64,000 nucleotides of DNA from Megalonaias nervosa (taxonomy: Eukaryota; Mollusca; Bivalvia; Unionida; Unionidae), in contig JAECUM010001125.1 of the NCBI GenBank assembly GCA_016617855.1, positions 62,001 through 126,000 on the forward strand, read 5' to 3'. The first letter of the stretch is position 1; each line of letters opens with the position of its first letter. Below are positions 24,201-30,200 of this stretch, in pieces. Below the pieces are notes generated by a model that saw nothing but the letters and a program-made list of their open reading frames with translations, did no database searches and was not told the origin of the DNA. The position numbers and the translations under genes are program-made.

Positions 24201-27200
24201 TATTAAAATCTGAATCTTTAAAAGATGTTGCCGCTAGTTGTATAAGCTTTAATCTGTTCTTTGTTTATCAGCTTAATCTGTTACTTGTATCTATATGAAT
24301 ATTGTCCTGTACTGAGAACCCCCTTTAAAAGCTCACAGGTATTGTCTTCTGGATAATTCTGCTCCAAAATAAGAATCTATTTTACTAACATAAGCTCTGC
24401 CAAAGTTTAACTTTGTTGAATTAGCACTCCAGCCACTACTAAAGTACTATGTCAGATGTACTATTCCATAATGCTGTATTAGGATTTTTTAAGTCCAGTA
24501 ATGTCATAGTCTACTTGTTCTGAGATATCATGATCAAATAAACATCTTTACTTTTTAATTTAATTTTTAGATTCTTATTTATTAGATTTATCTTAACCTT
24601 TATGCTAGGTCTATGTGGTTTTGCAGCACATGATCCCGCAGGGCTAAATTGTAAAGAGAAAAGAAACTAAAAGTGCATTCAACTTTAAAATTGTCTGTAT
24701 TTTAATTTGACTTCTTTGTCTGCCTTTCTACATTTAGTTTTGAAATACTGCTGAAATGAGGGGTTACAAGCATGCCTTCTGTTTTTGTCCATCCAGCATG
24801 TACATCAGATTCATATTTGATGCCATTTTGGAGTTCAAAATCACTCACTGGAACCTGCATTACCACTTTCCCAGCTCCAATAATCTTACATATTTCCTAA
24901 TTTTAAAAATAAATTAAGATCAGCCAGTATTTGCTGAATGAACTCATCATCTAAAAATGAACAACAGTGGGAATCAGCCATTTTGTCTTCTAGATAACCG
25001 GTATTATAAACAAGCATTTGTAAAACTTCCTTGATGCAAGGTTCAAATTACAATACAATGCTTGTTATGGGGCACAATGTTCCAATCAAATTTAGTTTAA
25101 CAACCATTCATGTCTAGGCAAAGAAATCAAAGGTGTAAAGTTATGAAAAAATACATATCATGACAAACACTACAATATTTCTACCATTTCTACAAGCATT
25201 TTAAAGGTGAATGGCTAAATAAAGTTGTATACACAGAACATTTTCATATGCATGACTTGAAATTAATTTGTGGGAGTTCTTGCATATCACCACTTCCAAG
25301 TGCACAAATTTGTACAAATTTTGCATGTATCATGTGATTGTGCGCCCTGGGAGCATCACTAATTACCATGCATAACAACTTTTATTTGTCCACCTAAGGA
25401 TTTTGTATAATTGAACTAACGCAGTTTCTTTAAAAATGTTCATGTCCATAAAGTTAAACAATGTTTACAAAAATTGAAAATATATTAAATGCCCTGCAAA
25501 TCTACTACTGTCATCAACATATGAATACACACATACCAACCAAATGTCAGTCTTGTGAGCTTTTTAATTAATCATGCTAACAAGGGTTGTGTATTAAAAA
25601 ATCGAATTAGTAAAAGTTTGTCAAAAATAAAAATTTGCTGTAGTGGACTAAACAAAACGAACAAAAACATTACAAATACCAAAAGTGAAGAACTATGAAT
25701 AGTAAAAGACGCACCTAGTTTAACATGTGCACCAAGTTTCATGGACATATCTTTAATGGTTTTGCCATGGAAATGAAAGGGTTGATAATGGATAACAGGG
25801 TTAAAAGTGAAAACAAATTTTAACATTTCAGGGTTTTTTAATAGCTTTTCTTTTCAAGGTTCTAAATTTTTTTTGAGGTTAAAGACACAAAACAGTTACA
25901 AGATTATCTCCATGGTCAGCATAACATTTACAAAACAAAATCTGATAAGGGATCAAATGAATGACAGAATAAAAAGACCAGATGTCTTTAATTTGCATAA
26001 TTAACATAGTTTCTCAACTGATAGCCTAGCCTAACAAAAAAAAAAAAGTCTGCAAAAAAGAATTTTTTGCGGAGACGGGGTAAAGCCATTCAACATTGCT
26101 TTAAAGTTTTAGGTTTTTTTTAATTTTGCTTTCCTTCAGTTTTCTTAAGGCTATTTTTTCTTCAGTTTCCAAAGCCGAAATGAAAATATTATGTTTTTTA
26201 AAGTTTCTTAAGTTCACTTCTAACCCTGGAATAGATATATGTACAAACAGACAAAAATATTACAAATACTGGAAATGAATTGTGAACAGCAAAAAAAACC
26301 ACATCTGGATAACTAGACAATAAGTACGTCAAGTTTCAAAGAAATTTCTCAAACAGCTTTTAGTACTGCACTGGAAATAAAACTGATGGATGGACAGATG
26401 GACTGATGGATGGGACCCATTTTTATGTCACCCGCCCAACATTATGGGTGGGAGATAATTACAGAGTGACAAAGAATTAATATTATAAATAGCAAAATCT
26501 TCATTGTGGTATATCAAAAAGAAGACTCTTGCACAATGAGAATGATGCAAAGTGAATACAGAAAAAACCTGAATGATCACAACTTTCAAACCTTATTTTA
26601 TAAACCAAGTGCAAGAAAATTCCAACTGTATAACTGTATAATATAATTTTCAGTGAAGTATATTTTTATGTATATTTAACACTCTCACCTTTTCTGCGAG
26701 CATCAGCTACTGCATTTGCACTTGTTTTGCTCATTATTTTAACAATGTACAAAGGGCAGTTAACTTGGTTAGCTATGGCAATGGCTCTATTGGCTGCTTC
26801 CCCTTCCACCTAAAAATACCACAAAGGTCATTCATGGTCATCTGACATAACTACTGCTCATGTGCAAAGGAAAGGTAACCAATGAGACATCAGAATGCAA
26901 TGCAAAAGATAAACCCAAGAAATACCAAAAAGGCAACTAGACAGGCTCTAAAGGCAAAAAGCTATATTTACATGACAAGAGTTCAGGAAAATATGGAAAT
27001 TCTGAATAAGATTCAGTTGTAAAGATCATTAAATTTGTATTCCTCTGAAAGAATTTATATTTCTTTAATGCAAAATCTGGAGACTAAACAAATCCTGATT
27101 TTACATATAATAGCAAATTTCAGGTATTGATGCCGCCTGCTTATCCTTTAACTTTCATAGCATCTGTTGCTGTGGAGGCAGTGGCTAACAAGAGCCAAAC

Positions 27201-30200
27201 CTTTGAGTGTGTGTGCTATAAATCAAACCTGTAACTTAAATGATTTCACACCTGGAAAATTTAGAACAGTTTAGTACATATTATGTTCAACCTATTTGTT
27301 TTAACCATTTTACCTTCTGGTATATATTTGTGTGTGTGATTTGGATTTTTAACATAGCTTTAACAATTTTACAGTCATATTGATATGACGTCTGCAGTGT
27401 GGCAATTTATAGTGATGTCTAGCATTGGGGCATCATGCCGCAGACATGTCCCAAACCATCACATTATCCTGACACCAGGCTGACCAGTCCTAACATTACC
27501 CTCTTAATGCTGAGCACCAAGTGAGGCAGCTGCTAATATTCTTTTTATAAGGTGTTTTTTTTAACTCGGTCAAGGGTTCAAACCCGTGACCTCCCACATG
27601 CATGGCAGATGCTCTAACCACTTAGACCACTGGAGGTACATATCTGTGATCATTAGAAAGGTTTTAGAGTAAAATGTAATCTCTATATCCAAATAATTAT
27701 TTTTCACTGAAGAATTTTTATGCTGAGAGAATTCATTCATGGTCACATGACCCAAATTGAGTAACCATACAGCAACATTTCTCAACCTCTAAACCTACCA
27801 GCTTATTTCTGTACCACTAAATCATCTGAATTGGATAAATTGTCAAAATTGGTGTTGTCTATATCAATATCAAAGCCTACATCTGACTTACTGAAGCCTT
27901 CACAGACATAATTCTAATTGTCCAAATTCTAGAAAGTGTTCAATGAAGTCTGTGACCTCCATTTTGGATAAGGGAGAATATGACCCTGTTACCATTTTAA
28001 ACAGCTGATTATGACTTTATCTTAAATAGTTTCTAACAGGGGGCATTTCTAGAAGTCAGTGCTATGAAAATCAGCTCAAAATGGACAATGTTTACTGTAG
28101 GTGTCAAAATGCGCTTATATGCAAATTAGTCAATATATTTTTCAAACATGAAGCCAAAGAAAATAGTAATTTGAAAAAAAATGTAATTTCAATGTTTGAT
28201 CACTATATAATCATGAGAAACTGTTATCAATATTAGAATTTCCAGTTTACCTGAACTCTGACCTGACTATCAATCTATAATACAAACCTCTCCTTCGTGC
28301 TGCACAGACAGCATCTGCAGCGGATTTACTCATGACATGCACAACATACAGGGGGCAGTTACACTGATCTGCAATAGTTATGGCCCTTGACGTGGCTTCT
28401 GCTTCAACCTAGTCCACAACAACAAAGAAAAACATGCAAAGAATAGCTTAGTAATTAAAGCCCACAACAATGACGAGTAAAATCAAGGAATAAAAGTGGA
28501 AAAAAATTACAGAGAATATGAGAAGGGAAAAGTAAACATGGGTCCTCATCACTTTTTATTTGTGGATACATGCTTTTTATTAGCATAAAAAAAAATTAAA
28601 GCAACAAAGAGGGTACACTAAGTGAAATTTCACATCACAAAATAAAAACAAAACCCACAAGTAAACCCATTAAAAGCATAAAATTTGCAATTAAACCATT
28701 TGCAGTGAATCATGTGCAAAGTAGATGAGTACTACAACTTCTTGTTATGGTTACATTTCTAATCTCTTCACATAAGAACACTACTCCCTCATTATAATGC
28801 TTACCATGGGAGACATGGAGTAAATTATTTAGTGGGACCACTTTAAGACAGGGTTCCTGCCACAAATTTAACAAGATTCCACACCTTTTCCATAGATTTT
28901 CCAGACCAAAAAATACAAATTTCCAGACCTCCCAAAGAGCTCAGATCTGTATACTAAAACTTCTCCCACATGCAAAAGAGCAGTCGCGTTATTGGTTTCC
29001 AACTAAGAGGGTAATAACAACAATTTAATAATTTTTCAAGAACTTTAAGTCATTTTTCAATTTTTCCAGACATTTCCAAGACCTGGAAAAAGAATTTTCA
29101 AATTCTAGACTTCTTCCAGAATGCCATACCTGTGTTGGAACCCTTTTATAATCAAAACAAATATAATTTTACTGCTGAATAATGACATGGGATCCATGAC
29201 TAAAATTACCTAATAACAGTAATCATGTTATAATGAAGGGCCTTATACTGAGGGAGTTTGTATATAAACATTATGACCTCACTCGTTAATATTAAATCTT
29301 ATTCACTGACAAGTCATCTAGTGAAATAATAATAATAATAATAACAACACTTCATTGCTTCAAAGCCTTTACAATATATGTTTCAAAAGCTGTGGTTGTC
29401 TTTTCATCAGATATATCATTCTATTATTAAAATTGCTGTTAAAATGTTCAAAAAGTCTGAGATGAGCTTATTTTCAGGCAAAAACTAAATGGTCACAAAT
29501 ATGTAGGTTAATTTTCATGCTGAATGATGACTGATGAGGTGGAGTAATAAAGTTTGACAATTAAGGTTTGAGTAAATATTAAAGTCAGGATACATTTACA
29601 ATTTTCTACAATATTTCTGATATTACATAAGCAAAACAAGAGCAGAATCATAAAAATCATTAGCTTTTTAAAAGTTAGAATGTCTGATTTAACTTTGGGT
29701 AATAATAACTTCGTATAAATACATTGTTACTTAAAAAAGTTGGTAAAGATTAAATAAAGTTTATTTTGGCAATACATTTATGTCTGTGATTTCAAACTGA
29801 AGCCTAAATCGAAACAGCAAAATATGTTTCATTTTAAAGGAAATGTTTACTTGTAAAGAATTCAACAAATTAAGTTGCGTCAAATGCCCAGTTTATACCT
29901 CTTCAGGTCGACTCATCTCATGCCCTTCTGGGCCTGTGATTCCCATAGCTATCAACTCCTTGGACTTCTGAAAAAATAAATCAATTTATGATATGATGTT
30001 ATTAAAATAATTTATTATAAAATCATCTCATATTTTTTGTATATTACATCAAACACAGCAAAAGCGTAACACCATAAGGTTCTAAATGTAATGCCATTAC
30101 AGTGTAATACATCAAACAAGGCAGAAGTGTAACATCTTGATGTTCTCAATGTAATGCCATTACTGTGTAATACATCAAACAAGGCAGAAGTGTAACATCT

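What the first reader, a model, noticed from the sequence alone, without database searches (positions are those of the whole stretch)
26689..28408. Mutually exclusive exon pair switches the catalytic histidine to lysine
Seen: exons 7a (28288-28408) and 7b (26689-26809) are both 121 nt, in the same phase and 25/40 identical in protein. 7a has VHVMSKSAA with the metal-binding histidine; 7b has VKIMSKTSA with lysine and CRMP-like neighbours. Known: CRMPs have lysine here and are not enzymes; the fly CRMP locus makes DHP and CRMP forms by alternative exons (from memory). Inference: this locus makes an active dihydropyrimidinase with 7a and a CRMP-like form with 7b, a switch conserved well beyond insects or arisen twice.
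Basis: partly seen in the sequence, partly recalled or inferred. Interest (0 to 1): 0.93.

Follow-up and report, generated by a model that had tools for sequence, protein, structure and literature searches.

The report
Mussel enzyme with a swappable active site
One freshwater-mussel gene carries two interchangeable versions of a single exon, one keeping and one removing a metal-binding histidine, so by splicing it can probably make both a pyrimidine-degrading enzyme and a non-enzymatic CRMP-like relative, a trick known from flies but built here from a different piece of the gene.

Summary
Confirmed and extended. The minus strand holds most of one dihydropyrimidinase/CRMP gene of a Sinanodonta-like mussel: 14 coding exons plus one alternative, 567 codons; the start codon lies outside. 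Between exons 6 and 8 lie two 121-nt exons of the same phase. 7a has metal-binding His248; 7b has Lys, as vertebrate CRMP1 does. Either alone keeps the frame; both or neither gives an early stop. The other five ligands sit in constant exons. Gene models of Mytilus and Mya hold both exons in the same order, and bivalve 7b exons group together (96/94), so the pair is older than the split of these bivalves. Of 120 relatives, 25 have Lys there and 22 of these keep the other five ligands.

The fly CRMP gene is the known precedent. But Drosophila, Bactrocera and crustacean isoforms switch a different unit, from residue 16 or 17 of exon 7 through exon 8, so the arthropod and bivalve pairs probably arose separately over the same histidine. 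Not shown: expression, activity of either form, a neuronal role for 7b. Verdict: new variant of a known kind.

The parts
62177..62271 (-). exon 1 of the part in the window (an upstream exon with the start codon must lie outside)
   Evidence: the P0003 N-terminus has no convincing match in the window
55081..55154 (-). exon 2
52472..52582 (-). exon 3, constant, ligands His67 and His69
47991..48155 (-). exon 4
45482..45624 (-). exon 5, constant, ligands Lys159 and His192
29899..29967 (-). exon 6
28288..28408 (-). exon 7a, 121 nt, His at position 248 (DHP type)
26689..26809 (-). exon 7b, 121 nt, Lys at position 248 (CRMP-like residue)
   Evidence: 39/40 in Sinanodonta P0003
19324..19480 (-). exon 8, constant (a second acceptor at 19531 would add 51 nt in frame)
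18474..18615 (-). exon 9, constant, ligand Asp326
18085..18168 (-). exon 10
14120..14299 (-). exon 11
10577..10663 (-). exon 12
10026..10215 (-). exon 13, tail with CRMP-like SSFSLSG
3118..3203 (-). exon 14, end of the CRMP-like tail and stop codon

Best explanation
A single gene makes two proteins by using one of two mutually exclusive 121-nt exons. With 7a the active site has all six metal ligands and the product is a dihydropyrimidinase. With 7b the ligand His248 becomes Lys, which should break the metal site and give a CRMP-like, non-enzymatic protein with the same fold and tail. Exclusion is enforced at least by frame: joining both exons or skipping both brings an early stop and so, probably, nonsense-mediated decay. 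What picks the exon is unknown; by analogy with the fly, 7b would be used in neurons. Shown: gene model, exon pair, frame logic, ligand switch, presence of the pair in other bivalves. Inferred: activity of the 7a form, inactivity of the 7b form, tissue use, decay.
For: Open 567-codon model with either exon; stops at codon 267 (both) and 222 (neither); GT-AG sites throughout. Ligand mapping to human DHP 2VR2 and ligand list with Lys254 of CRMP1 at the His248 place (PMC2999344, passages). 7b 39/40 in Sinanodonta. Both exons in tandem in Mytilus P0060 and Mya P0056 models. Same-type exons more alike than gene-mates in 9874 of 10000 column bootstraps. 25 of 120 hits have Lys at 248 and 22 of the 25 keep the other five ligands; 8 of the 25 come from contigs of at most 3.4 kb, too short for introns like these and so cDNA-like. 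Fly precedent with neuronal and non-neuronal forms (PMC8652244, passages).
Against: No RNA or assay for this species. The Mytilus and Mya models with both exons are faulty predictions (P0056 lacks exons 6 and 10, P0060 has a 14-residue linker and no N-terminus), so they prove the exons, not the splicing. Flanks of the Lys are barely CRMP-like. Both forms score above NCBI's dihydropyrimidinase cut-off. The CRMP-like tail is in constant exons, so it is not special to the 7b form.
Confidence: 0.85

Rival explanations
1. The 7b form is not a neuronal CRMP but an inactive partner subunit: the two forms mix in the tetramer and the splice ratio tunes dihydropyrimidinase activity.
For: The two forms differ at 15 of 567 residues (25/40 in exon 7), so mixed tetramers are plausible; the CRMP-like tail is common to both; 7b outside the Lys column is about as near to DHP as to CRMP2.
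Against: The fly precedent separates the forms by tissue, exon 9a non-neuronal and 9b neuronal (PMC8652244, passages), which leaves little room for mixing there.
Confidence: 0.2
2. One origin: the pair existed before arthropods and lophotrochozoans split, and the borders of the switched unit were later moved in arthropods.
For: Same histidine switched in both; Lys-type rows in lophotrochozoans, crustaceans, hemichordates and echinoderms; one clade of all Lys exons is not rejected, p-AU 0.362 in 52 rows without arthropods.
Against: The arthropod unit starts at residue 16 or 17 of exon 7 and includes exon 8; crustacean Lys rows match at most 1 of 6 bivalve 7b marker columns, though residues before 16 are constant in them; hemichordate and echinoderm Lys exons group with their own His exons at 89/91.
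Confidence: 0.3
3. Exon 7b is a dying copy that is no longer spliced in.
For: No transcript evidence in the window's own species.
Against: Open frame and intact splice sites; 39/40 kept in Sinanodonta; 31/40 and 29/40 in Mya and Mytilus; cDNA-like Lys rows in other animals.
Confidence: 0.03

Closest known systems
Drosophila CRMP gene, exons 9a/9b (Morris et al. 2012, not held; seen through passages of PMC8652244 and PMC7954323; its abstract recalled)
   Same: One gene, two homologous exons, one with the metal-binding His and one without; the DHP form and the CRMP form share the rest of the protein.
   Different: In Drosophila, Bactrocera and crustaceans the switched unit runs from residue 16 or 17 of mussel exon 7 through exon 8 and the first residue of exon 9; in the mussel it is exon 7 alone. 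The replacing residue is Gly in Drosophila, Arg in Bactrocera, Lys or Asn in crustaceans, Lys in the mussel.
Vertebrate DPYS and CRMP1-5 (DPYSL) genes
   Same: Lys in the place of His248 in CRMP1 and CRMP2; similar tail.
   Different: Separate genes; in CRMP1 His69, Lys159 and Asp326 are also replaced (1KCX column of Table 1 in PMC2999344, passages), whereas the mussel 7b form changes His248 only.
Snail dihydropyrimidinase-like paralogues with Pro or Gln at 248 (P0027, P0033, P0035, P0036, P0037, P0043; P0064, P0069, P0094)
   Same: Loss of His248 in a protein of the same family and phylum.
   Different: Rows forming their own clades in the tree of the constant part, and 8 of the 9 have lost further ligands; so dedicated genes rather than splice forms (inference).

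Membership tests
mutually exclusive homologous exon pair | two homologous neighbouring exons of equal length and phase with own splice sites | tested here: met
   121 nt each, phase 0 to 1, AG/GT, 25/40 identical
mutually exclusive homologous exon pair | only single inclusion gives a full-length frame | tested here: met
   stop at codon 267 with both, at codon 222 with neither
mutually exclusive homologous exon pair | transcripts with either exon, none with both | not testable with these tools
   no RNA-seq; cDNA-like Lys and His rows exist in other animals
dihydropyrimidinase (7a form) | six metal ligands His67, His69, Lys159, His192, His248, Asp326 | tested here: met
   ligand list PMC2999344 (passages)
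dihydropyrimidinase (7a form) | family model above curated cut-off | tested here: met
   TIGR02033 629.9 bits against cut-off 393.25; the 7b form also passes with 625.5, so this does not separate the forms
dihydropyrimidinase (7a form) | hydrolysis of dihydrouracil | not testable with these tools
   needs an enzyme assay
CRMP (7b form) | non-His residue, Lys in CRMP1 and CRMP2, at position 248 | tested here: met
CRMP (7b form) | other metal ligands also replaced, as in CRMP1 | tested here: not met
   the other five ligands are in constant exons and intact; by this feature it is not a vertebrate-type CRMP, though it may work like one
CRMP (7b form) | CRMP-type C-terminal tail | tested here: met
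   alignment to CRMP1 and CRMP4 chains to position 563; shared with the 7a form
CRMP (7b form) | neuronal expression and cytoskeletal role | not testable with these tools
   analogy with fly exon 9b only (PMC8652244, passages)
arthropod CRMP exon pair | switched unit from residue 16 or 17 of exon 7 to the end of exon 8 | tested here: not met
   mussel unit is exon 7 alone; arthropod isoforms

The most novel reading that the evidence does not exclude
The same enzyme-to-pseudoenzyme splice switch evolved more than once, by duplicating different exons over the same catalytic histidine: in lophotrochozoans by copying the whole 121-nt exon 7, in arthropods by copying the end of exon 7 with exon 8, and perhaps again in hemichordates and echinoderms, whose Lys exons group with their own His exons. 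Snails, horseshoe crabs and vertebrates reached a similar end with separate genes. Where the switch is by splicing, shared constant exons keep the other five ligands in the pseudoenzyme.
Probability: 0.55. Interest if true: 0.78.

Novelty: new variant of a known kind. Interest (0 to 1): 0.62.

Why it matters
It turns a fly case into a comparative system. If the bivalve and arthropod switches are separate, then deleting this one metal ligand by splicing is a repeatable route to a CRMP-like protein, and one residue with about 14 neighbours may suffice for the change of function. It makes the question of how CRMPs arose testable, since exon duplication and gene duplication can be compared within one phylum, bivalves against snails. 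For annotation, invertebrate records named dihydropyrimidinase may be either of two forms, and some gene models fuse both exons.

Tried and rejected
1. I first took the 'residue 192, His to Gly' of PMC7954323 (passages) to mean that the fly switches the exon-5 histidine. The isoform comparison speaks against it: exon 5 is identical in both Drosophila forms, and it is position 248 that goes from His to Gly.

2. RNA pairing between introns as a docking mechanism: intron 6, intron 7a-7b and the first 1.5 kb of the intron after 7b were paired two by two; none of the three best duplexes was stronger than the mean of 15 shuffles. Whole-intron duplexes are a blunt test, so this is inconclusive for short elements. 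Steric exclusion is unlikely, as 1478 nt lie between 7a and 7b, and all sites are GT-AG.

3. A search restricted to exon 7b found 2 proteins only, from 9 candidates, because it needs exact shared words.

4. Morris et al. 2012 is not held; what I say of it comes from passages of PMC8652244 and PMC7954323 and the recalled abstract. Whether it already treats other invertebrates I do not know. The ten paper searches listed no paper whose title or abstract start reports this pair in a mollusc; I read passages of seven papers, none whole. The five papers listed were not opened.

5. Rows left out: from the backbone tree 9 of the 120 hits, which were fused, partial or outlying (P0005, P0015, P0032, P0056, P0060, P0087, P0090, P0093, P0102). 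The exon-7 tree used 48 hand-picked of the 120 hits plus window 7a and 7b and the second exons of P0056 and P0060; arthropods and the Pro/Gln snail rows were left out. Row labels such as lgnArk or lgnAnn in that call are my guesses for unnamed rows.

6. P0005, P0015 and P0156 also show two exon-7 matches. They look like repeats of longer stretches or of whole genes and were not counted as exon pairs; I did not dissect them further. P0211/P0234 (Anopheles gambiae) differ only at the N-terminus and P0114/P0059 are from two Penaeus species, so neither bears on the borders.
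Full report
What is there. The window's minus strand carries one dihydropyrimidinase/CRMP gene from 62271 down to a stop at 3118. I found 14 coding exons plus an alternative copy of the seventh. An upstream exon with the start codon must lie outside: the Sinanodonta protein P0003 has about 96 more N-terminal residues, for which the window gave no convincing match. All introns of the model are GT-AG, and with either exon 7a or exon 7b it is open for 567 codons. The nearest protein found is from Sinanodonta woodiana, 95% identical to the 7b form, so the window is from a freshwater mussel of that kind (inference). 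The 7b form scores above the Pfam cut-off for Amidohydro_1, and both forms score above NCBIfam's cut-off for dihydropyrimidinase (629.9 and 625.5 against 393.25). The C-terminal tail aligns with vertebrate CRMP tails.

The pair. Exons 7a (28408-28288) and 7b (26809-26689) have 121 nt each, start in phase 0 and end in phase 1, and agree in 25 of 40 residues and 76 of 121 nt. Alone, 7a finds dihydropyrimidinases first and 7b finds CRMP2 first among PDB chains. Because 121 is not a multiple of three, using both gives a stop at codon 267 and using neither a stop at codon 222: only single use gives a full protein.

The switch. By alignment with human DHP (2VR2) the six metal ligands fall on constant exons 3 (His67, His69), 5 (Lys159, His192) and 9 (Asp326), and on exon 7 (His248). 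PMC2999344 (passages) ties these six residues to metal coordination and gives Lys254 of CRMP1 in the place of His248. Exon 7b changes this one ligand to Lys. Outside that column 7b is not clearly CRMP-like: 27/39 to CRMP2 and 26/38 to human DHP, while 7a has 25/39 and 28/38. Over 25 Lys rows the CRMP2-minus-DHP count averages 0.52 (range -5 to 6), over 80 His rows -0.61 (range -4 to 3).

Age in bivalves. All 239 fetched proteins have an exon-7 match and seven have more than one. Two of the seven are bivalve models with both exons in tandem, 7a first: Mytilus edulis P0060 and Mya arenaria P0056. Both are imperfect predictions: P0056 lacks exons 6 and 10, P0060 lacks the N-terminus and has 14 residues between the two exons. 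With the His/Lys column left out, same-type exons of the three species agree in 29.0 of 39 residues on average and gene-mates in 25.0; same-type exceeds gene-mate in 9874 of 10000 column bootstraps. In a tree of 52 exon-7 rows (39 columns, that column masked) window 7b, Sinanodonta, Mya 7b and Mytilus 7b form one group at 96/94. So the duplication is older than the split of these bivalve lineages.

Wider distribution. Of the 120 listed hits to the mussel protein, 77 have all six ligands and 25 have Lys at 248; 22 of the 25 keep the other five. The 22 include Octopus, the chiton Liolophura, Lingula, the annelid Paralvinella, two hemichordates and two echinoderms, besides crustaceans (names, animal groups recalled). 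Eight of the 25 come from contigs of at most 3.4 kb, so they look like spliced transcripts; the names of these animals are not given. On a tree of the constant part (111 labelled rows of the 120 hits) His and non-His rows need 19 changes (shuffled mean 30.9, none of 500 as low), with close pairs of opposite type: P0012/P0013, P0082/P0083, P0065/P0071. The exon-7 tree needs 5 changes (shuffled mean 15.1, none of 500 as low). The two row sets differ, so the two numbers are not a strict comparison. The pattern fits one gene sampled in either form, since the database shows one protein per 90% cluster. Results against a simple story: P0013 has Lys yet sits among His exons; hemichordate and echinoderm Lys rows sit with His rows of the same groups (89/91); the split of most lophotrochozoan Lys exons from the rest has weak support (46/75) and holds two His rows; one clade of mollusc Lys rows or of all Lys rows is not the best tree, though neither is rejected (p-AU 0.238 and 0.362).

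Comparison with arthropods. Isoform pairs from the same contig (taken as the same where the listed contig length agrees) in Macrobrachium and Eriocheir, two Drosophila species and Bactrocera dorsalis are identical from exon 1 to residue 15 of mussel exon 7, differ from residue 16 or 17 of exon 7 to the first residue of exon 9, and are identical again after it, except that the crustacean pairs also differ at the C-terminus. The Scylla pair shows the same but comes from two assemblies. Gryllus P0090 and Glossina P0183 models hold both arthropod units in tandem. Position 248 is Gly in Drosophila and Arg in Bactrocera, Arg in Gryllus, Lys or Asn in crustaceans. The fly precedent is published: the exon 9a form is non-neuronal and supports pyrimidine catabolism, the exon 9b form is neuronal and does not (PMC8652244, passages citing Morris 2012). 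The mussel pair copies a different unit, so I think separate origins more likely than one, about two to one, while noting that exon borders can move and that I had no arthropod genomic DNA.

Separate genes. In snails, rows with Pro (P0027, P0033, P0035, P0036, P0037, P0043) and with Gln (P0064, P0069, P0094) at 248 form two clades, and 8 of these 9 have lost further ligands; some of these rows are unnamed and are placed with snails by the tree only. Tachypleus P0062 and P0103 have also lost further ligands. Where a gene no longer serves the enzyme, the other ligands drift; in the 22 Lys rows they do not. This contrast is indirect sequence evidence that those Lys rows share their body with an active form.

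Limits. There is no RNA, no assay and no genome-wide paralogue count (genome search did not complete). The function of the 7b form is by analogy. What regulates the choice was not found.

Noticed in passing
19324-19531: Exon 8 has two acceptors because a 51-nt stretch over the splice site is tandemly repeated; using the outer one would add 17 residues in frame.
   Followed up: partly
10026-10215: Exon 13 holds an inner GT donor (CCAGG|GTGAC) whose use would give the shorter tail seen in Sinanodonta P0003, which lacks the SSFSLSG part.
   Followed up: partly
37380-38840, plus strand: Two ORFs in intron 5 match transposase family PF13843 (2.1e-20 and 2e-42), a transposon remnant or copy on the opposite strand to the gene.
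   Followed up: partly
24702-24896, minus strand: A 64-codon ORF in the intron after 7b looks protein-like by eye but has no Pfam match at 0.01.
   Followed up: partly
protein hits P0027, P0033, P0035, P0036, P0037, P0043, P0064, P0069, P0094: Two snail clades of dihydropyrimidinase-like proteins have Pro or Gln at the catalytic His, 8 of 9 with further ligand losses: likely gene-duplicate counterparts of the splice switch.
   Followed up: partly
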